A stretch of 13,633 bases of DNA from Thermococcaceae archaeon (lineage in GTDB: Archaea; Methanobacteriota_B; Thermococci; Thermococcales; Thermococcaceae): positions 1 through 13,633 of the forward strand of contig JAMOPD010000170.1 in NCBI GenBank assembly GCA_027064745.1, read 5' to 3'. The translations under genes were made by a program, and so were the position numbers. Below, one piece after another: positions 1,413 to 13,633 of this stretch (its first letter is position 1; every line of letters starts with the position of its first letter). The notes under the pieces were generated by a model, which saw only the letters and a program-made list of their open reading frames with translations, was not told the DNA's origin and did no database searches.

Positions 1413-2126
1413 ATGGATGTGCTGAGCACGATAGTATTTTTTGCCTATGTCCCTGCAATTGTAATAATGTGGTACTTCTATCATTTAGATAAATACGAAC
1501 CAGAGCCTAAAAAATATGTTATTGGAACATTTCTGCTTGGAGCTACACTCTCTGTTGGTGTTGCATTTGTACTGGAAACTCTACTCACTCCACGTTGGAT
1601 AAGGGGATATGCTCTCCTTCCTGCAAGTGCCTTTTATCTAGCCTTAGTTGCGGGAATTGTTGAAGAACCTGCAAAGGCCTTGGCAATAAGATTACCCTTT
1701 AAAGCGGGTCAAATGGATGGGATCATGGATGGAGTGGTCTATGGTATCGCTGCAGGTTTAGGATTTGCAGCAACAGAAAACATGCTCTATGGTCTTGGAT
1801 ATGGTGCCGCAATCACTGTAACAAGGGCATTTTTAACCCCTTTTGCTCATGGTAGCTGGAGCGCTATAGTAGGAGTTGGATATGGACTAAAATCCGAAGG
1901 TAAAATACATTCTCTAACGAACTATTTCCTTCTGGCAATCTTCCTTCATTTTCTCTGGGATTACTATGCATTTATGAGTGCTACACTTCCTCAGTATAAC
2001 ATCATGCTAATCCTCCTGCTCTTCATAAATCTAATTCTACTGAGATATTTCGTTATCTTAGGCCAGAGGGAAGATCTAGAGAAACAGTGGTGGTACTGGT
2101 TTGTGGGAGGCAGGAAGAATGTATAA
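1413..2126 (+). CDS. PrsW-family intramembrane protease (CPBP/PrsW superfamily)
   Basis: A 237-residue multi-pass membrane protein. Family hallmarks are visible: the glutamate motif EEPAK (84-88), a DGxxxG stretch (106-111) leading into GFAATEN (117-123), AHGSWS with H146, and HFLWD with H179. These acidic and histidine residues form the metal-site signature of PrsW and related CAAX-type proteases. About seven hydrophobic segments are seen (near 7-22, 37-57, 70-90, 108-126, 130-153, 171-190 and 196-217). The PrsW founder in Bacillus cleaves the anti-sigma factor RsiW; archaea lack that system, so the substrate here is unknown. GGTGAT at 1404-1409 sits just before the ATG and supports this start. 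A 71-residue gene follows after a 60-nt gap and could be cotranscribed. Confidence 0.85.
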   Translation: MDVLSTIVFFAYVPAIVIMWYFYHLDKYEPEPKKYVIGTFLLGATLSVGVAFVLETLLTPRWIRGYALLPASAFYLALVAGIVEEPAKALAIRLPFKAGQMDGIMDGVVYGIAAGLGFAATENMLYGLGYGAAITVTRAFLTPFAHGSWSAIVGVGYGLKSEGKIHSLTNYFLLAIFLHFLWDYYAFMSATLPQYNIMLILLLFINLILLRYFVILGQREDLEKQWWYWFVGGRKNV

Positions 2127-2186
2127 GATTGAGATATTCCACGGAAAGGGTATGGAAAATGTACTGACTTGTAGGGGGTAGGAGAA

Positions 2187-2402
2187 ATGTCTGAGCTAAA
2201 AAATCGCATTGAGAAGGCATTGTTTGAAGCTCGGCCTTATATTGAGTATTTTGATAATGTGAAGAAGAAGATAGATGAACTGGAGGAAAAGGCTACTGAC
2301 GTCGATAGCTTTCTGTTCCTACTTAACAAAGAGATTGAAGTCGCTGAGGAACCTTTCAAGACTGACTTAAAGATTTTTCTGCAGAAATTTGAGGGCATAT
2401 GA
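2187..2402 (+). CDS. small charged helical protein of unknown function
   Basis: A 71-residue protein that I do not recognise. It is rich in Glu, Lys and Asp, has no cysteine and no membrane segment. Residues about 1-40 (with KKKIDELEEKA near 26-36) should form a long amphipathic or coiled-coil helix, and a second helix probably spans 45-68. The ATG has AGGAG two to three nt upstream, somewhat close, and GGGGGT slightly further away. It lies 60 nt after the PrsW-like gene on the same strand, so cotranscription is likely, but a functional link is unproven. Codon use looks like that of its neighbours. Coding status rests on the ribosome binding site, codon pattern and position. Confidence 0.6.
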   Translation: MSELKNRIEKALFEARPYIEYFDNVKKKIDELEEKATDVDSFLFLLNKEIEVAEEPFKTDLKIFLQKFEGI

Positions 2403-2525
2403 ATTTTCCATTCCCTGATTCCCGTCAAAACTAAAAGCTACCCATGCATAGGCCAGCACAGGGATAGGGGCATTTTCCATTTTTGCAAATTCTTCTTAGT
2501 GGTAATCAAAATATGAATAGAAAAA
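2403..2525. other. non-coding stretch after the small helical gene
   Basis: No convincing gene, RNA or repeat is seen in this part of the long gap between the 71-residue gene and the GDPD operon; the remainder of the gap holds the decayed gene described separately. A 37-codon minus-strand frame (about 2370-2480) exists but lacks a ribosome binding site. Confidence 0.5.
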
Positions 2526-2576
2526 GTATTTAAACTTCAACAACACTTTCTATAGAAAACCTCTGGGAGAGGGAGC
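2526..2576 (+). promoter_or_regulatory. core promoter and leader of a decayed gene
   Basis: GTATTTAAAC (2526-2535) after an A-rich stretch looks like a BRE/TATA box. Initiation would fall near 2556, followed by GGGAGAGGGAG just before an ATG at 2577. The arrangement looks like a genuine gene start, although the reading frame after it is broken. Confidence 0.45.
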
Positions 2577-2983
2577 ATGAGAAACATCAGACTAGTATTT
2601 ATAATGATTCTTATGAAACAGCTAGTACCCTAATTCCCATCATGTCTTTGGTTGTGCTTGTTGAACGCCTGTATGAGCAACCACTTAGCATCTACAAGCA
2701 TCAAAACCAATCTTTAATGATGAGAACTTAGGGTACCCTCAGGATTAACGGCACGGTAGGATGGGCATTAACAGCTCAAAAATTCTGCATGGAGAATGCT
2801 TCCAGAATCTCTGTATTCTTGAGTTTGAGAAAAGATGGAACATCCCATCCGGAGGATATGAGTAGGTGGAGTGCCACGGGAAGGATGATAGTGGATGGAA
2901 GGAGGTCTGTTGAAGGTCAGATGAAGTTCATTATTAGGCATCAGAAGGAAAACATGGATAGAAGAGAAAGAGGTGCACTTTGA
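2577..2983 (+). pseudogene. decayed gene, possibly for a secreted or membrane protein
   Basis: The ATG at 2577, preceded by a promoter and a purine-rich leader, opens a hydrophobic N terminus (MRNIRLVFIMILMKQLVP) that stops at 2631. A second frame is then open from 2534 to 2728. After a TAG at 2729 the same frame runs from 2732 to 2983 for 84 codons, with protein-like text such as INGTVGWAL, ENASRISVFLSLR and DMSRWSATGRMIVDG. A third frame (about 2946-3050) reads KEVHFEITYALAGWN into the 3' end of the neighbouring GDPD gene. The pattern fits a single ancestral gene broken by at least one frameshift and one stop. An ATG at 2789 would give 64 residues but has no ribosome binding site. I recognise no family; a secreted protein is suggested only by the leader. 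Confidence 0.4.
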
Positions 2984-3026
2984 AATTACCTATGCCCTTG
3001 CTGGCTGGAATCAATGCCAGAAATCT

Positions 3027-3782
3027 TTACCTCAGTCCGAGCTCCTTTAGGTACTTGATCATTCTTTCAACATCGTTTGCTATCACAACATCGAATAAGC
3101 TCTTCAACTTGGTCAGATTGTTGTTTTTGTAAAATAGGATGTCATTTTCAGTCCAGAGAGCAACTCTAAGGCCTAAAGAGCGCATCCAGCGAAGCGCCTG
3201 TAGGGTTTTTTCAAGACCTATCAGAGGAATGGCCTCCATCGGAACATTTACAGACCAGAGTTTAAGTTCCTCTTTAAGCTGTGGTATCTTAGGGACAACT
3301 TTTTCATTATCAATGAGGAGACCGATTCTTATTTTATCATTTAATCTTCTGGTTTTTCTTAGAGCTTCAAGTTCGAATGATGATATCATAACCCTGTCCA
3401 GGGCATTAAACTCCTCAACAACTCTCAGGCTTTCCTCAACCGCATCGACGTCCTTTATCTCAATGTTAATGAGGGCATCTCCCGGCAGAACCTCAAAGAC
3501 CTCCTCAAGTGTTGGGATATTCTGCCCCATTCCGAGGTTGGCTTTTTTCAGTTCTTCCAGCGTCATCTCCTTCTGGTGGCCATTCAGGCTTGAGGTTCTA
3601 TCTATGCTTTCATCATGCATGATTACAGCTTTTCCATCCCTTGTCAGCCACACATCGAGCTCTATCCCATCCGCTCCAGCGTTGATGGCCTCAACAAACG
3701 CCAGAATACTGTTTTCTGGGTATCTTGACATGAAACCCCTGTGTCCAAGAACTAGGGCTCTGTTCTCTTCCCAGCTTGCCAT
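3027..3782 (-). CDS. glycerophosphodiester phosphodiesterase family protein (downstream copy)
   Basis: A 251-residue GDPD-type TIM barrel, the usual size for the small soluble archaeal and bacterial forms. The family hydrolyses glycerophosphodiesters to glycerol phosphate and an alcohol using a divalent metal. Visible signature: HRG (14-16), PENS..AF (22-29), the metal-ligand pair E41-x-D43, HD (56-57) carrying the second catalytic His, DRTS (61-64), and IEIKD (107-111) with the third acidic ligand E108 and K110. There is no signal peptide, so it is cytoplasmic. It starts 29 nt after the stop of a second GDPD gene, so the two are almost certainly cotranscribed. GAGGCGGT lies upstream of the ATG. 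Archaeal lipids carry sn-glycerol-1-phosphate, so the physiological substrate may differ from the bacterial one. Confidence 0.9.
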
Positions 3783-3811
3783 AGCTACCGCCTCAGATAG
3801 AAAAAGACAGT

Positions 3812-4522
3812 TTATCTAAAAAGCCTTTTCCCTAAGAGCCTTGATGCCCTTGAGACATCATCCGAGATCAGGATATCGCAGTACCTAACAAGATAGGGGA
3901 GGTATTTAAATTCATCCTGCTGATAGTTCCAGAGTGCTATTTTAACTCCCATCCCCCTTGCCCATCTGAGGAGGAGTTTAAGAGCTGAAAGTCCTACATA
4001 GTCCACGGCATCTATAGGTACATGGAGGGAATACAAGCCAAGCTTTCTTCTAAGAACAGGAAACTTAAAGAGTGAGTTCCACTCCACTATGGAGAAGCCC
4101 AGCTTCACATCTTCGTCCCTCTCCCTAATAGCCCGCAGAATAGCAGGGCTATCGGATGATAAAATTACCCCATCTAACTTTCCAGCAACCTTGAGAACAT
4201 CATCAACAGCGTCAATATCCTTAACATCCACGTTAAAATATGCCTCTGGAAATTCTCTGAGAATTTCATCGACGGTGGTTACCATAGCTCTAAGGGGATG
4301 CAGGCGCTTTATCTCACTCAGTTTCAGGGTTTTTACATCAAAAGTCTCTCCGTTGGTTCTGAAGTATCTATCATGCATCACTATGAGCTTTCCGTCTTTA
4401 GTTAGCCAGACATCAAATTCCACTCCATCTGCTCCATACTGGAGGGCTTTTCTGAATGCTGGGAGAGTGTTTTCAGGATAAAACCTTTTGAGTCCTCTGT
4501 GGCCAAGCAGCATTATGTTCAA
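3812..4522 (-). CDS. glycerophosphodiester phosphodiesterase family protein (upstream copy)
   Basis: A 236-residue paralogue of the gene that follows it in the operon. Conserved points: HRG (8-10), PENT (16-19), E35-x-D37, HD (50-51), and VDVKD (98-102), where the third acidic metal ligand is Asp instead of the usual Glu. The region after HD reads RYFRTNGE and lacks the normal DRT motif seen in its neighbour (DRTS). These differences suggest altered substrate use. The start is uncertain: the upstream frame opens with TTG at 4522 ([10 protein letters not shown]), which gives a full first beta strand, while ATG at 4513 is the first conventional start; neither has a strong ribosome binding site. 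A core promoter at 4555-4571 puts initiation near 4535, compatible with both. Confidence 0.87.
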
Positions 4523-4590: not shown

Positions 4591-4662
4591 GATGCTGTTA
4601 GAATAACCCGTGAGAGTGCCTGATAATCCAGTATGCGAGCTGTTAATTATCCTGACAGTATC
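4591..4662 (-). repeat. short inverted-repeat element, copy 1 (MITE-like)
   Basis: A 72-bp non-coding element, related in inverted orientation to 12471-12546. By hand alignment about 53 of 72 positions match, with one 4-nt gap. The shared blocks are ATAACCCGTGAGA, CCTGATAAT, GTATGCG and TCCTGACAGTAT. Its two ends are imperfect inverted repeats: GATGCTGTTAGA at one side, and the complement of TCCTGACAGTATC (GATACTGTCAGGA) at the other. It has no coding capacity. It lies between the divergent GDPD operon promoter and the start of the broken MFS gene. It may be an old miniature transposable element or a conserved regulatory block. Confidence 0.6.
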
Positions 4663-4691
4663 TCTATATTGGCGCTTAATGGAGGGGCTAA

Positions 4692-5155
4692 ATGGATGTG
4701 GAGTTTAATTATAAGAGGATATTCCTGCTGGGTTTTGGTTTTTTGGTATAAGCATCATATGGGCGCTCTACAACGCTTATATTCCTATCTTCCTCCAATC
4801 AGTCTGTTGATGAGTATTGGCGTCATGATTGTAACGCTGTACCTCGGTCTTCAGGCAGCTGCTGGAAAGATGAAGGTTAATATGGTAACAGGTCTTTTGG
4901 ATGGGGATGTCAATGTGAATTCTCCCCATGGTCGTTGACATGACCACTGGACTATACTACTTCTTCAGCCAAGCAGCAAGCATATTTGCACCATCTGTTG
5001 TAGGTGATACCATCGATGTCACAGGCTACCAGTCGCTCCTCGTGTTTTCAGTGCTGTTTTTTGTTCTCGCACTGATTTCAATTCAGTTCGTCAGGAGGGG
5101 AGATATAGTCAAGCACAAAGGGGATATCTATGACTATGTACCCGACATAGACTGA
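4692..5155 (+). pseudogene. broken MFS transporter gene
   Basis: A good start remains: GGAGGGG at 4681-4687 precedes the ATG at 4692, reading MDVEFNYKRIFLLGFGF. The frame then ends at a TAA at 4749. Adding one T to the run at 4739-4744 restores GISIIWALYNAYIPIFLQS, a typical MFS first helix, which ends at a TGA at 4808. A second frame continues with LLMSIGVMIVTLYLGLQ, and a third, from about 4919, reads ILPMVVDMTTGLYYFFSQAA and then ends FVRRGDIVKHKGDIYDYVP up to the TGA at 5153. Only about 460 nt remain of an expected 1200 or so, so most of the middle is deleted. The C-terminal part resembles the last two helices of the intact transporter just downstream. This is a pseudogene with at least two frameshifts and a large deletion. 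Confidence 0.75.
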
Positions 5156-5240: not shown

Positions 5241-6506
5241 ATGGAAAAGAAAAGATTTAATTGGGGAATTGTTCTTGGACTGTCTTTTCTAGGATTCAGC
5301 AGAAGCCTTGGATGGGCGTTGAATAAAGGGTTTTCTTTTCCACTACTGTCTGCATACACCGGATCAGCATTTGTTAGAGGTACAATACTTGCCCTTGAGG
5401 GATTTATCGGTCTATTCATTCCACCTCTACTCGGATATTACAGTGATACTCTAAAATCGAAACATGGAAGGAGAAGACCTTTCATTTTTATAGGTGGTAT
5501 CCTGGCTGGCATTGCATCTATGATGATTTATACTGCCTATGTTCTTGGTGTTCCTCTCTTAGGTTTTGCCCTCGTCTTAGCCTTCTTGTATCTGTCTCTC
5601 CATTTATACACTGCCCAGTATCGAGCTTTAATGCCCGACACTATAGAGAGTGGCCAGAGAGGAAAGGCAAGCGGCTTTATAACACTGTTTGAATGGGCAG
5701 GAAATCTGTTTCTCTTTGGCATTGGGGGATATCTGGTCGCTAAACATGGAACAGGCTACTGGGGACCTTTTGCAATTGCCTCTGTTTTCTTGGTAGGTGC
5801 AGCATTGTTTATCTCCCTGAAGATTAAAGAGCCTAAAGCCCCCGAAATAGAAAAGGATGAATCCCTTGGAGAATACGTAAAAAGTATTTTCACAAACCAT
5901 GATTTTCTACGCTTTTATATCGCCCAGATTCTCTGGTGGATGAGCTTTGAGTTTGTAGCAATATTCCTTTATGGAATTCTTGCATTTATCCTCTATGGAA
6001 CAGCTACTGAGTCGGCAATAGACAAGGTTACCTCAATGGGATTGTATTTGATGGCCATGTTCAATATTGCGGTTTTACTCGGCTCACTTCCAGGGGGATA
6101 CATCTACGATAGAATCGGCAGAAGACTGAGCATAATCTTTGGAGGCTTGATTTTTGCGATACCTCTACTGGTTGGTTGGTTCATTCACACGAAGACCCAG
6201 ATATTCATCACTATCCTCCTGGCTGGAGTTGGATGGGGAGTTTTGGTGGCGGCTTCCTATCCAGTAATAGGAGATCTGCTTACAAAATACGAGAAGGAAG
6301 CATTTACAGGCCGTTACTATGGTGTCTTTGAAGCAACAAAATCAATACCTGTTCTTTTAGCTGGAACTATAGGAGGAGCGCTGGTCGATTTGGCAGGGGG
6401 GAACTATAGGGTTCTCTTTCCAATAGGTGCCCTGCTTGTCCTCGTTGCGATGCCACTTATATGGAGCATGAAAAGACTTGAAACCTCTCAGGAGGTAATA
6501 ACATGA
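5241..6506 (+). CDS. MFS transporter, SLC45/GPH sugar-transporter-like
   Basis: A 421-residue major facilitator with about twelve hydrophobic segments. Motif A appears in both halves: GYYSD with GRRRP (65-80) between helices 2 and 3, and GGYIYDRIGRR (285-295) between helices 8 and 9. YRALMPD (127-133) is typical of the SLC45/sucrose-transporter-like branch, so a sugar or glycoside carried with a cation is the likely substrate, by family resemblance only. A charged cytoplasmic loop (about 194-215) separates the halves. GGAGGGGGTGA at 5226-5236 precedes the ATG; a nearby ATG at 5236 is out of frame and ends after seven codons. Its stop overlaps the hydrolase start (ATGA), so the two form an operon. 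A damaged relative lies immediately upstream. Confidence 0.88.
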   Translation: MEKKRFNWGIVLGLSFLGFSRSLGWALNKGFSFPLLSAYTGSAFVRGTILALEGFIGLFIPPLLGYYSDTLKSKHGRRRPFIFIGGILAGIASMMIYTAYVLGVPLLGFALVLAFLYLSLHLYTAQYRALMPDTIESGQRGKASGFITLFEWAGNLFLFGIGGYLVAKHGTGYWGPFAIASVFLVGAALFISLKIKEPKAPEIEKDESLGEYVKSIFTNHDFLRFYIAQILWWMSFEFVAIFLYGILAFILYGTATESAIDKVTSMGLYLMAMFNIAVLLGSLPGGYIYDRIGRRLSIIFGGLIFAIPLLVGWFIHTKTQIFITILLAGVGWGVLVAASYPVIGDLLTKYEKEAFTGRYYGVFEATKSIPVLLAGTIGGALVDLAGGNYRVLFPIGALLVLVAMPLIWSMKRLETSQEVIT

Positions 6507-9811: not shown

Positions 9812-10432
9812 TTATCCCTTCTTTAAAAGCTCGTGCTCAACTAGAGCCACTATGTCATTATGTATGTCCTCAAGCGGCGCTAGTGCATTAACAATTTTCA
9901 TCTCAGGAAACATTTCTGCCAACTTGAGATAGTTTTCCCGAACCCTCTTTTGAAGTTCCGCTATCTTATCAAACTCCGTTTTTATACTCCTGCCATTGAT
10001 ACGCTTCATGCTCTCCTTTGCCGGCAGGTCAAGGAGAATAACTAGATCAGGCCTAACAGCAAATTTGTTCAAATCGATTAGCCATTCGAGATCCAGACCA
10101 CGTGCCCACTGATAAGCTAAGGATGAGTAGAAATAACGATCAGAAATAACAATCTTTCCTGCCTTTAATGCAGGCTTTATGAGCTTGTGAACGTGTTCAG
10201 CTCTATCAGCTGCAAACAGAAGAGCCTCAGCTTCATGGCTTATTCTAGCACCGTCGATTATTCCTTCCTGGCCCCCTGTAAGAACGAGCCTCCTTATCAG
10301 CTTCCCAAAAGCGGTGTCAGTTGGCTCTTTTGTCAGTACGACATCTTTTCCTTTGTTTCTGAACCATTCAGCCAACAATCTTGCCTGAGTTGATTTTCCT
10401 GCCCCATCAATGCCCTCCATTACAATAAACAT
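9812..10432 (-). CDS. tmk: thymidylate kinase
   Basis: A 206-residue dTMP kinase (dTMP + ATP to dTDP + ADP), the normal family length. Visible: P-loop GIDGAGKST (7-15), KEPTDTAFG (35-43, the EPxxT substrate loop), the DRYFYSS motif (98-104) contacting dTMP, LILLD-like strand 132-135, and a LID region around 143-155 ([11 protein letters not shown]). It is cytoplasmic and essential for dTTP synthesis. GGAGGTG (10438-10444, minus) five nt before the ATG fixes the start. It has its own promoter, so it is probably not simply a tail of the upstream pyrophosphorylase operon, which ends 153 nt away. A stable hairpin lies directly after its stop. Confidence 0.96.
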
Positions 10433-10467
10433 AAAAACACCTCCACAGGAGATATGGTGGGAGGGGG

Positions 10468-10477
10468 ATTTTTAATG
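10468..10477 (-). promoter_or_regulatory. TATA box of tmk
   Basis: Minus-strand CATTAAAAAT, preceded by GGAAAG, is a good BRE/TATA match. Initiation near 10446 leaves a short leader of about 14 nt that is almost filled by the GGAGGTG ribosome binding site. Confidence 0.6.
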
Positions 10478-10504
10478 CTTTCCATCAAATTTTTTGGAAA
10501 TTTT

Positions 10505-10585: not shown

Positions 10586-11293
10586 TCAGAGATGCTTTCG
10601 CATGTAGTCAAGGAGCGTCCACATGCTGCTGAATTCCTGGGTTTCATCATCATGATAAATCTCAACTATGCCTTCAGGTCTAAATCTCATGCCGAATGAG
10701 TAGTTTCCTTTCTTCAACTTCTGGAGGAAAACCTCACGCGGCTTCGGTGGGAGGTAGCTTGTCATCATGTCATTCAACAATTCAACCTCAAATCCAAAGT
10801 GTTCACTCATTCTTGGGAAGAAAAGCACCGCAGGAGTATTCATGCAATCAACTAGTGCTTTACCTTCGAGTTTGAAATGATAGTGCTTGAAAACCTCGTG
10901 GAGGAAATCATCTATTGCATTGGGATAATATACTGTTGCACCGATGTCATTAGGATGTGCCTCTATGAAGCTCCTACTCTTGAGTATCGCCTCTATTTCA
11001 TCAGCATCAACCCCGCTGATCTCAACCTTCACACCGCTATAATAATAGACATACGCCAGTGGAAGGCCTTTTTTATGGGCAAAGTCCTTGAGGGCTATAA
11101 GCGGGATCAGCCTAACATCCATAATCGTTGAACCGGTACTTACGATTCCAACAACCATTGCCCTCTTACCATAACGGGAAATTGCTCTTCCGTCCCTACC
11201 CACTATAATTGTACCCTGTGCAACAGTCCCTATAGCCCTTCCAAGCAGAGCCAGTTCCTCAGGATTGAACTTTTCCGAGTGGTATATCTCCAT
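10586..11293 (-). CDS. two-domain phosphohexomutase-like protein lacking catalytic motifs
   Basis: A 235-residue protein related to the first two domains of alpha-D-phosphohexomutases (PMM/PGM/GlmM, about 450 residues). Numbering from the chosen ATG, VGRDGRAIS (31-39) and the following G-x-V-D-x-x-x-x-P pattern match domain 1. Where active enzymes carry the phosphoserine loop TASHNP, this protein reads YYYSGVKVEISG (about 83-94). VDCMNTPAVLFFPRMSEHFG (about 147-166) resembles the start of domain 2, but the metal motif DGDxDR is replaced by RFRPEGIVEIYHDDE. Domains 3 and 4, including the phosphate-binding end, are absent. It is therefore unlikely to be an active mutase. It starts inside the upstream pyrophosphorylase stop region through GAGGTGAT, so the two are tightly coupled; a regulatory or scaffold subunit is the simplest inference. 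Confidence 0.8.
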   Translation of the reverse strand: MEIYHSEKFNPEELALLGRAIGTVAQGTIIVGRDGRAISRYGKRAMVVGIVSTGSTIMDVRLIPLIALKDFAHKKGLPLAYVYYYSGVKVEISGVDADEIEAILKSRSFIEAHPNDIGATVYYPNAIDDFLHEVFKHYHFKLEGKALVDCMNTPAVLFFPRMSEHFGFEVELLNDMMTSYLPPKPREVFLQKLKKGNYSFGMRFRPEGIVEIYHDDETQEFSSMWTLLDYMRKHL

Positions 11294-11297
11294 ATTT

Positions 11298-11305
11298 ATC
11301 ACCTC
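11298..11305 (-). promoter_or_regulatory. ribosome binding site deciding the mutase-like start and coupling it to the upstream gene
   Basis: Minus-strand GAGGTGAT overlaps the TGA stop of the pyrophosphorylase and lies four nt before ATG 11293. The in-frame GTG at 11302 is part of this site, so it is not the start. The overlap implies translational coupling. Confidence 0.75.
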
Positions 11306-12389
11306 AATCGGGTAGTATTATGCTTTCTTTTCCAATTCTGGACTCAACCCAGATTTTAACATTCGAACCAATCTTGCTGAATTCTTCAATTACGCTGTTA
11401 TCGCCAATCACACTTCCGGGCTGTATAACGGCACCCTTTCCAATATACACGTTTTCTCCTATAATCGCTTCTTTGATCTCGACACCTTCATCTACAGTAA
11501 CATTTGAGAATATCACCGAACGTTCTATTTTAACATTTCTCCCAACTTCCACATTATCTCCTAATACTGCAAAACCTCTGATACTAAAGTGCCTGAGTCT
11601 GCATCTTCTTCCTGTGAATATGGCCCCACCGTATTCAAGGTTTCCCTTCAGTGAGTCCACCCTTATTTGAGGTAACGAGAGCTTTCCCATAAAGACATCC
11701 TTAGTTGCCTGGAGATAGCTTGATGGCCTTCCCACGTCATTCCAGTATTCATCAAATGGAAATCCATAGAGAGGAAGATTCTCCTGAAGCATCTTCGGGA
11801 ATAAATTCATTGAAAAGTCGAAGTTTTCATTTTTAGGCACTAAATCAAAGACCTCCGGCTCAAAAACATACATTCCAGCATTCACTAAGTTGCTGAAAGC
11901 TTCCTCTGGTTTTGGCTTTTCTTTGAATCGCATAATGCGGTTCTCATCATCTACTATTGCGATTCCATATTGTGTTGGATCTTCAACTTTTGAGAGTGCA
12001 ATTGTGGCCAATGCATTTTTCTTCTTATGATACTCATAGAACTCTTTTATGTGTAAGTCAGTCAGCACATCACTTGATGCTACTATAAATGTGTCCTCCA
12101 TTTTCTCCACAACTTTTTTTGTGGCTCCTGCAGTGCCAAGCTTCAGATTGTCTTTATCGGAGTAATGTATCTCAATTCCCCATCTGCTACCATCCTCAAA
12201 GTAGTTCGTTATGCGTTCCTTGAGGTAACCTGTCAGGACAAAAACTTCATCAACACCCACTCTAATCAGCTTTTCAAGAACATACTCCATAATGGGCTTG
12301 TTGAAAAAGGGAACCATGGGTTTTGGCCTATAGACTGTCAGAGGGAGGAGCCTCGTCCCTTTACCGCCTGCCATAATCACTGCCTGCAT
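11304..12389 (-). CDS. NDP-sugar pyrophosphorylase (mannose-1-phosphate guanylyltransferase-like) with left-handed beta-helix
   Basis: A nucleotidyltransferase that joins a sugar-1-phosphate to an NTP, releasing pyrophosphate. Numbering from ATG 12389 (361 residues): GGKGTRLLPL (8-17) with RPKPM (21-25) is the nucleotide-binding signature; SSDVL (105-109) holds the metal-binding Asp, where most relatives have GD; EKP (157-159), NAG (170-172) and WNDVG (216-220) line the sugar site. From about 255 to the end are hexapeptide repeats of a left-handed beta-helix. The architecture matches GMPP-like enzymes, so GDP-mannose is a reasonable guess, but substrate specificity cannot be read. The frame extends to a GTG at 12398; MQAVIMAGG at the ATG is the family's usual start and is preferred. 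It is coupled to the mutase-like gene; in several bacteria the same two parts are fused in one chain. Confidence 0.88.
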   Translation of the reverse strand: MQAVIMAGGKGTRLLPLTVYRPKPMVPFFNKPIMEYVLEKLIRVGVDEVFVLTGYLKERITNYFEDGSRWGIEIHYSDKDNLKLGTAGATKKVVEKMEDTFIVASSDVLTDLHIKEFYEYHKKKNALATIALSKVEDPTQYGIAIVDDENRIMRFKEKPKPEEAFSNLVNAGMYVFEPEVFDLVPKNENFDFSMNLFPKMLQENLPLYGFPFDEYWNDVGRPSSYLQATKDVFMGKLSLPQIRVDSLKGNLEYGGAIFTGRRCRLRHFSIRGFAVLGDNVEVGRNVKIERSVIFSNVTVDEGVEIKEAIIGENVYIGKGAVIQPGSVIGDNSVIEEFSKIGSNVKIWVESRIGKESIILPD

Positions 12390-12601: not shown

Positions 12602-13633
12602 ATGTTCATGAACGCACTCGAATATCTTGAAAAAAGACTCGAAAAAGAACAGTTTGAAAAGATTAAAGCAATAGATAACCCAGAACTCCATGAGTTTCTG
12701 GCAAAATATATTGAGCTTTTAAATCCTGACCGGGTTTTTGTATGTACCGACAGTGAAGAGGATGAGTTTTACGTTAGATGGAAAGCCCTATATTATGGGG
12801 AAGAGAAAATCCTTGAAACTCCAGGGCACACTGTGCACTACGACAACTACTATGACCAAGCAAGGGACAAAGCAAACACCAAGCTCTTAATTCCGGGAGG
12901 AAAAAAACTGCCATTTCTGAACACGCTTGATAGAGATGAGGGGTTGAAGGAAATACATGAGCTCATGAAAGGTGTAATGAAGGGAAAAGAGCTGTTCGTG
13001 TGCTTTTTTGTCCTCGGTCCAAAAGAGTCTGTTTTTACGATCCCAGCAGTCCAACTAACGGATTCTGCTTATGTGGCTCACTCTGAATTCATCCTCTATA
13101 GAAAAGGTTATGAAGAGTTCAAACGCCTTGGAAGGCAGGCGAGATTCCTCAAATTCGTGCACAGTGAGGGCGAGCTTGATGAAAGAAAAACGAGCAAAAA
13201 CCTTGACAAAAGGAGGATTTACATAGATCTGGAGGACGAAACCGTATATTCCGTTAACACCCAGTACGGCGGCAACACGATAGGCCTTAAGAAGCTTGCC
13301 TTCAGGCTCACCATTCAGCGCGCTGTCAGAGAAGGATGGCTGAGCGAACATATGTTTCTCATGCGCGTGAACGGACCGAACGACAGGAAAACTTACTTCA
13401 CAGGAGCTTATCCAAGCATGTGTGGCAAGACATCAACAGCAATGATACCATGGGAAAACATTGTCGGCGACGATCTGACGTTCATAGTTCCCATGAAAGG
13501 CGAGGCGAGGGGTACAAACGTTGAGAAGGGCGTCTTTGGTATTATCCAAGGTGTAAACCCAGAGGACGACCCGATAATATGGAAGGTGCTGCATTCCCAG
13601 CATGAGATAATTTTCTCAAACGTACTTATCAAG
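12602..13633 (+). CDS. pckG: phosphoenolpyruvate carboxykinase (GTP), N-terminal part, cut by the window end
   Basis: The first 344 codons of GTP-dependent PEPCK, which runs on past the window edge (full archaeal forms are about 620 residues). It interconverts oxaloacetate + GTP and PEP + GDP + CO2, the entry to gluconeogenesis or an anaplerotic step, in the cytoplasm. Visible: YGGNTIGLKK (222-231), the oxaloacetate/PEP site region; FTGAYPSMCGKTSTAM (266-281), the P-loop with the hyper-reactive Cys (C274) and K276; VGDDLTF (288-294) with the metal-binding Asp pair. There is no stop or frameshift in the visible part. The start is ambiguous: ATG 12602 has AGGAGG five nt upstream, while ATG 12608 (MNALEYLEKRL) is eleven nt away; both fit the predicted leader. 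I kept the upstream one. Confidence 0.95.
   Translation, partial: MFMNALEYLEKRLEKEQFEKIKAIDNPELHEFLAKYIELLNPDRVFVCTDSEEDEFYVRWKALYYGEEKILETPGHTVHYDNYYDQARDKANTKLLIPGGKKLPFLNTLDRDEGLKEIHELMKGVMKGKELFVCFFVLGPKESVFTIPAVQLTDSAYVAHSEFILYRKGYEEFKRLGRQARFLKFVHSEGELDERKTSKNLDKRRIYIDLEDETVYSVNTQYGGNTIGLKKLAFRLTIQRAVREGWLSEHMFLMRVNGPNDRKTYFTGAYPSMCGKTSTAMIPWENIVGDDLTFIVPMKGEARGTNVEKGVFGIIQGVNPEDDPIIWKVLHSQHEIIFSNVLIK

What the first reader, a model, noticed from the sequence alone, without database searches (positions are those of the whole stretch)
10586..11293. Catalytically dead, half-length phosphohexomutase coupled to a sugar pyrophosphorylase
The protein keeps domain 1 and part of domain 2 of the PMM/PGM family but lacks the TASHNP phosphoserine loop, the DGDxDR metal motif and domains 3-4. 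It is translated from a site overlapping the pyrophosphorylase stop. Fused pyrophosphorylase/mutase proteins exist in bacteria, and eukaryotic GMPPA is a non-catalytic partner of GMPPB, so a pseudoenzyme subunit controlling NDP-sugar synthesis is plausible and seems little described in archaea.
Basis: partly seen in the sequence, partly recalled or inferred. Interest (0 to 1): 0.75.

Follow-up and report, generated by a model that had tools for sequence, protein, structure and literature searches.

The report
Inactive sugar-mutase relative, conserved without partner
A heat-loving archaeon carries a half-length, apparently dead relative of sugar-phosphate mutases that its whole order keeps almost unchanged, even in species that have lost the sugar-activating enzyme encoded next to it, so it probably has another, still unknown, job.

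Summary

'Subunit of the adjacent pyrophosphorylase (NT)' holds only in part. Where NT exists, PM follows it by 4-14 nt, but NT is gone or broken in 28 of 93 loci, 11 changes on the locus tree. NT was never found without PM, and PM's dN/dS is not raised in NT-less sets. PM therefore very likely has an NT-independent function.

Best reading: a repurposed, ligand-binding regulatory pseudoenzyme with a client besides NT. Ligand and client are unknown.

The parts
10586..11293 (-). PM: two-domain (D1+D2) phosphohexomutase-fold pseudoenzyme, 235 aa
   Evidence: intact in 93 of 94 Thermococcales genomes
11298..11305 (-). ribosome-binding site GAGGTGAT of PM, overlapping the NT stop codon (11304-11306)
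   Evidence: sequence; PM starts 4-14 nt after NT in the 63 loci with full-length NT
11304..12389 (-). NT: sugar-1-phosphate nucleotidylyltransferase with left-handed beta-helix C-terminus, 361 aa
   Evidence: Pfam NTP_transferase 197 bits and hexapeptide repeats; best NCBIfam match man1P_GTase_Rv 245 bits, under its cut-off of 440
9812..10432 (-). tmk: thymidylate kinase, directly downstream of PM in 93 of 93 loci
   Evidence: TIGR00041 189 bits, over its cut-off of 83
10466..10483 (-). TATA-like element in the PM-tmk gap (GGAAAGCATTAAAAATCC); tmk may have its own promoter
   Evidence: sequence; a loose TATA-like hexamer occurs in 70 of 93 PM-tmk gaps (no chance control)
12602..13633 (+). GTP-dependent PEPCK, N-terminal part, divergent neighbour of NT (not part of the system)
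   Evidence: Pfam PEPCK_N 210 bits, PEPCK_GTP 114 bits

Best explanation
PM is a genuine pseudoenzyme: domains 1 and 2 of an alpha-D-phosphohexomutase, stripped of the catalytic loops and kept throughout Thermococcales for a non-catalytic job that does not depend on the adjacent pyrophosphorylase. Shown here: the fold (by prediction), loss of the catalytic motifs, strong purifying selection, close coupling to NT where NT exists, repeated loss of NT with PM kept. Inferred: the cleft between the two domains, lined by invariant Arg/Lys/Asp/Asn residues (R33 D34 R36 R40 K43 R44, D59 R61, D149 N152, N174 D175 K184, R203 at the former metal motif), still binds an anionic ligand such as a sugar phosphate or NDP-sugar, and PM passes that signal on by binding another protein. 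NT would be one client (perhaps the ancestral one, as in bacterial fused proteins with dead mutase halves). A second client present across Thermococcales, for example another sugar nucleotidyltransferase or a catalytic mutase, would explain why PM stays after NT is lost.
For: Intact orthologue in 93 of 94 genomes. PM dN/dS: NT-less sets 0.032 and 0.026, NT-bearing sets 0.023, 0.021, 0.042, 0.029; tmk control 0.017-0.037 (six sets, 59 of 93 genomes). NT lost or broken in 28 of 93 loci, 11 changes; no NT without PM. 96 of 235 positions identical in at least 92 of 93 sequences, denser in five loops that face the cleft in the parent fold (37 of 47 against 59 of 188; loops chosen by me from recalled mutase anatomy after seeing the alignment). 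High-confidence model matching T. kodakarensis PGM and PPM over 234 residues. Of TK1108, TK1404 and TK2185 only TK1108 exhibited both PGM and PMM activity (PMC11940775 passage); PM = TK1404 by gene order. Precedents: GlmM inhibits the c-di-AMP cyclase CdaA, its domain 2 making the main contacts (PMC8573169 passages); non-catalytic GMPPA binds GDP-mannose and interacts with GMPPB (PMC11228364, start of abstract in listing).
Against: No ligand, client or interaction has been observed. The cleft loops were named after the fact, and their glycines and prolines may be conserved for structure alone. One of the two NT-less dN/dS sets is not a clade, so it includes branches on which NT was still present; the other is. 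Strict adjacency to tmk (93 of 93) was not predicted by this explanation. The tie to the bacterial pseudo-mutases is unresolved: the D1-D2 tree rejects neither PM+fused (p-AU 0.281) nor PM+active (p-AU 0.182), and its best form puts PM next to the outgroup, perhaps by long branches. The PM profile scores active mutases of its own order (34-55 bits) above fused halves (0.7-29 bits); active mutases of other organisms get 3.6-29 bits.
Confidence: 0.6

Rival explanations
1. PM is a dedicated regulatory or structural subunit of the adjacent pyrophosphorylase NT, comparable in role to GMPPA for GMPPB.
For: PM starts 4-14 nt after NT in the 63 loci with full-length NT; fused NT/pseudo-mutase proteins in bacteria; NT never found without PM.
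Against: 28 of 93 loci have lost or broken NT with PM intact, and PM dN/dS is not raised in NT-less sets; six genomes show NT remnants beside an intact PM.
Confidence: 0.12
2. PM is a new enzyme: the cleft has gained a different catalytic residue set and works on another substrate.
For: Many invariant charged residues in the cleft loops; dN/dS as low as an essential kinase.
Against: No recognisable catalytic set or metal site (by eye); a positively charged cleft fits a binding site as well; TK1404 was not reported as a PGM/PMM (PMC11940775 passage; identity inferred). Other activities are untested as far as I could see.
Confidence: 0.15
3. PM regulates through hetero-oligomers with the full-length catalytic mutases of the same cell, using domain 1, the dimerisation domain in GlmM.
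For: Three other mutase genes in the same genome; PM retains domain 1; GlmM dimers form through domain 1 (PMC8573169 passages); TkPGM is a tetramer (PMC11940775 passages).
Against: No interaction data; dimer-interface conservation could not be measured without coordinates.
Confidence: 0.1
4. PM is a decaying remnant of a mutase gene, kept by chance or by linkage to tmk.
For: It is truncated and has lost its catalytic motifs.
Against: 93 intact copies without internal stops, dN/dS 0.021-0.042, 96 near-invariant positions, while NT beside it visibly decays in several of the same genomes.
Confidence: 0.01

Closest known systems
Alpha-D-phosphohexomutases (PMM/PGM, GlmM, T. kodakarensis PGM and PPM)
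   Different: No FGTxGIRG start, Ser loop, DGDxDR, domains 3-4; half the length
Bacterial fused nucleotidyltransferase/mutase proteins (about 832-845 aa; several named 'mannose-1-phosphate guanylyltransferase/phosphomannomutase' by JGI)
   Same: Same two modules in the same order; mutase half without the four motifs tested; shared L17, R40, R44, P206, G208 (also P114, F200, R203, F204 with the actinobacterial ones) that active mutases mostly lack
   Different: Fused and four-domain in bacteria; separate and two-domain in Thermococcales, where NT can be lost. Common descent of the dead state undecided
GMPPA/GMPPB
   Same: Idea of a non-catalytic partner of a GDP-mannose-type pyrophosphorylase (PMC11228364, start of abstract)
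   Different: GMPPA is itself a pyrophosphorylase paralogue; PM is a mutase relative and outlives NT
GlmM as inhibitor of c-di-AMP cyclases (CdaA/DacA)
   Same: A phosphohexomutase fold acting as a protein regulator; domain 1 dimerises, domain 2 makes the main contacts (PMC8573169 passages)
   Different: GlmM is an active enzyme; no evidence that PM touches the Thermococcales cyclase
PGM5/aciculin (non-enzymatic PGM relative of vertebrates; role recalled, PGM5 structures are listed)
   Same: Non-catalytic use of the phosphohexomutase fold
   Different: Full-length protein of the cytoskeleton (recalled)

Membership tests
Catalytic alpha-D-phosphohexomutase | phosphoserine loop (T/S)ASHNP | tested here: not met
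   0 of 93 orthologues have SHNP, 13 of 13 comparison mutases do
Catalytic alpha-D-phosphohexomutase | metal motif DGDxDR | tested here: not met
   0 of 93 against 12 of 13 comparison mutases; RFRPEG in its place in the window
Catalytic alpha-D-phosphohexomutase | four domains, sugar and phosphate loops in D3/D4 | tested here: not met
   233-243 aa; ends after D2
Catalytic alpha-D-phosphohexomutase | PGM/PMM activity | not testable with these tools
   Only TK1108 of TK1108, TK1404, TK2185 exhibited both activities (PMC11940775 passage); PM = TK1404 by gene order, inferred
Phosphohexomutase-fold superfamily (by structure and sequence) | significant similarity to domains 1-2 | tested here: met
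Bacterial fused pseudo-mutase family | common ancestry of the dead mutase module | tested here: inconclusive
   Tree with outgroup: PM+fused not rejected (p-AU 0.281), nor PM+active (p-AU 0.182); 9 (actinobacterial) and 7 (campylobacterial) residues shared with fused but rare in active, 11 and 8 the other way
Bacterial fused pseudo-mutase family | physically fused to the nucleotidyltransferase | tested here: not met
   In the 63 loci with full-length NT the two are separate frames: NT frames 362-414 aa, PM frames at most 277 aa
Regulatory subunit of a pyrophosphorylase (GMPPA-like role) | obligate co-occurrence with the catalytic subunit | tested here: not met
   PM without intact NT in 28 of 93 loci
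Regulatory subunit of a pyrophosphorylase (GMPPA-like role) | physical complex and effect on its kinetics | not testable with these tools
   needs protein work

The most novel reading that the evidence does not exclude
[quoted passage not shown] In Thermococcales it may control a client found in every species, possibly the diadenylate cyclase itself, which is present in 74 of 74 good genomes (90 of 94 in all) and lies within 1 kb of the GlmU-like nucleotidyltransferase in 42 of the 82 genomes where both were listed. This would link sugar-nucleotide state to a second messenger in archaea. The GlmM contact residues could not be traced in PM (inconclusive).
Probability: 0.08. Interest if true: 0.8.

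Novelty: new variant of a known kind. Interest (0 to 1): 0.52.

Why it matters
A core gene of a model archaeal order, named 'phospho-sugar mutase' in databases, is very unlikely to be that enzyme and is not tied to the gene it appears coupled to. The repeated natural loss of NT next to an untouched PM separates 'operon partner' from 'functional partner' and gives species pairs (G026/G039, G029/G041, G057/G061, G049/G060) in which to test it. In the two bacterial groups sampled, fused proteins named guanylyltransferase/phosphomannomutase lack the mutase motifs, so pathway annotations that count them as phosphomannomutase look wrong there.

Tried and rejected
Pseudogene: rejected by selection data. 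Duplicate from within the order's own catalytic mutases: PM plus these as one clade gets p-AU 0.031; a weak rejection with long branches. Shared origin with fused pseudo-mutases: suggested by shared residues, not shown by trees; the tree is unrooted, so its 'one side of a branch' answers say nothing on it. NT tree: Thermococcales NT and fused NT fall in one unresolved fork with other nucleotidyltransferases.

tmk as functional partner: adjacency in 93 of 93 loci, gap 13-153 nt, median 87; 70 of 93 gaps hold a loose TATA-like hexamer (no chance control), so co-transcription is uncertain; left open. Residues conserved in NT-bearing but variable in NT-less genomes: 14 positions, half of them hydrophobic, no clear patch without coordinates, and not corrected for kinship. 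GlmM-CdaA contact residues: the Priestia plasmid copy used as stand-in does not carry the acidic residues at those numbers, so the test failed. G035 as a species lacking also the GlmU-like enzyme: only one frameshift at 82% identity, possibly an error. Structure of a whole fused bacterial protein: low confidence (pLDDT 70, pTM 0.40), not used. Three short frames outside the order proved to be catalytic mutases cut by contig ends or a frameshift. dN/dS values were not in the first outputs and were read from the logs.

Literature: 10 searches; in the rows listed I saw no paper on this protein's function or on the fused mutase half being inactive. The library holds only open-licence papers, lists were capped (for example 15 of 128, 6 of 1,151), and the locus tags were partly recalled guesses and did not include TK1404. 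Passages only: PMC11940775, PMC8573169, PMC1414084 (no hit for this locus). Term search without hits: PMC2718504, PMC11641776.

Full report
WHAT IS THERE. The minus strand at 10586-11293 encodes a 235-residue protein, called PM here, starting at ATG 11293. Upstream, with 10 nt between stop and start, lies NT (11304-12389), a sugar-1-phosphate nucleotidylyltransferase with a left-handed beta-helix tail. The ribosome-binding site of PM, GAGGTGAT at 11298-11305, overlaps the NT stop codon. Downstream after 153 nt lies thymidylate kinase (tmk, 9812-10432), and beyond NT, on the other strand, GTP-dependent PEPCK.

CONSERVATION. The protein was sought in the 94 Thermococcales genomes held: 93 carry a strong orthologue (383-530 bits, 72-100% identity, no internal stop). 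The 94th, G053, is 73% complete and gave only weak matches, the better of which is a contig-cut catalytic mutase. A profile search of 5.8 billion proteins, limited to lengths of about 129-411 aa and to candidates sharing short words, found 61: the 60 of the first search (those with names are Thermococcales; most have none) and one partial Stenotrophomonas mutase. In 21 genomes of four sister families of the class the matches lie in frames of mutase length, or in three short frames that proved to be catalytic mutases cut by a contig end or a frameshift. Codon models on six sets (59 of 93 genomes) gave dN/dS for PM of 0.021-0.042 and for tmk of 0.017-0.037.

THE PARTNER IS LOST, PM IS NOT. The region was fetched for 92 genomes plus the window. 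Searching NT in these 93 loci: full length in 63, where PM starts 4-14 nt after NT (10 nt in 40); cut by a contig end in 2 (G003, which also has one in-frame TAG, and G083; both counted as present); degraded remnants in 5; nothing significant in 23. In one of the 23 (G035) the first and last few codons of NT are still visible (single matches E 0.29 and 1.1, convincing only by position). So 28 of 93 lack an intact NT. On a tree of PM plus tmk proteins this needs 11 changes, 11 also in the 5-95% bootstrap range. In several cases an NT-less genome has an NT-bearing sister (G026/G039, G029/G041, G057/G061, G049/G060). PM is 233-243 aa and open in all 93. PM dN/dS in the NT-less sets is 0.032 (a clade of 10) and 0.026 (7 genomes, not a clade), in NT-bearing sets 0.023, 0.021, 0.042 and 0.029: no sign of relaxation. 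No genome has NT without PM. PM is therefore very unlikely to be just a subunit of NT. What never changes is that tmk follows PM (93 of 93, gap 13-153 nt), but 70 of 93 gaps hold a loose TATA-like hexamer (no chance control), so this may be position only.

WHAT THE CONSERVED RESIDUES SUGGEST. 96 of 235 positions are identical in at least 92 of 93 sequences. Five loops that in active mutases face the active-site cleft (recalled anatomy; no coordinates were measured) hold 37 invariant positions of 47, the rest 59 of 188 (chosen by me after seeing the alignment, so the p-value is only a guide). Many are charged, and R203 sits in the former metal motif. I infer an anion-binding cleft; nothing here shows a ligand.

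BACTERIAL FUSED RELATIVES. The top-ranked plasmid matches of NT (H1-H4, 37-40% identity) are fused proteins of 832-845 aa with a mutase-like half: H1, H3 and H4 are annotated as one gene, H2 is an unannotated open frame of 838 aa. In 79 actinobacterial fused proteins (80 loci; one, L092, was not parsed) and 120 proteins (the best 120 listed of 803 found, query included; those with names are mostly Campylobacterota, a few are fragments) none has SHNP, DGDxDR, SGTE or GExSGH in the mutase half. Both samples were drawn by likeness to examples without these motifs, so other bacterial groups may differ. PM shares with both groups L17, R40, R44, P206 and G208, and with the actinobacterial ones also P114, F200, R203 and F204, all rare in active mutases; but it shares 11 (or 8) other conserved residues with active mutases that the fused ones lack. 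Trees do not decide: PM+fused gets p-AU 0.281, PM+active 0.182, and the best tree puts PM next to the outgroup, perhaps by long branches. The PM profile scores the order's own active mutases (34-55 bits) higher than the fused halves (0.7-29 bits).

CONCLUSION. Its proposed role as pyrophosphorylase subunit can be at most part of the story. The best-supported reading is a ligand-binding, non-catalytic regulator with a client other than, or besides, NT. GlmM acting on CdaA (PMC8573169, passages) and GMPPA acting on GMPPB (PMC11228364, start of abstract) show that both ideas have precedents. The client is the open question, and T. kodakarensis, which lacks NT, is the place to ask it.

Noticed in passing
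L035 4001-6538, L036 4001-6499, L041-L120 (about 1900-4400 in most): Bacterial fused proteins, several named 'mannose-1-phosphate guanylyltransferase/phosphomannomutase' by a source, have a mutase half without the four motifs tested: 0 of 79 and 0 of 120. Likely mis-annotation in the groups sampled.
   Followed up: partly
G000 contig C276 4125-5793 and relatives: The GlmU-like nucleotidyltransferase paralogue lies within 1 kb of the diadenylate cyclase gene (PF02457) in 42 of 82 Thermococcales genomes for which both were listed; the pair is convergent in the window's genome.
   Followed up: partly
L052-L116 (17 loci sampled): An ORF that looks by eye like a CDP-alcohol phosphatidyltransferase precedes the fused gene and has relatives in all 17 sampled actinobacterial loci (family not tested).
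   Followed up: no
L039 1-7386: On a Streptomyces plasmid the fused gene follows genes for an AGE-family epimerase and a STAS-domain protein, with a separate gene annotated phosphomannomutase/phosphoglucomutase nearby.
   Followed up: no
window 4633-5155: Two short ORFs just before the MFS sugar transporter (5241-6506) look by eye like pieces of a second, broken membrane transporter.
   Followed up: no
window 3027-4522: Two tandem glycerophosphodiester phosphodiesterase genes.
   Followed up: no
   Followed up: partly
P0059: Protein whose residue changes look by eye as if translated from C-to-T converted DNA.
   Followed up: no
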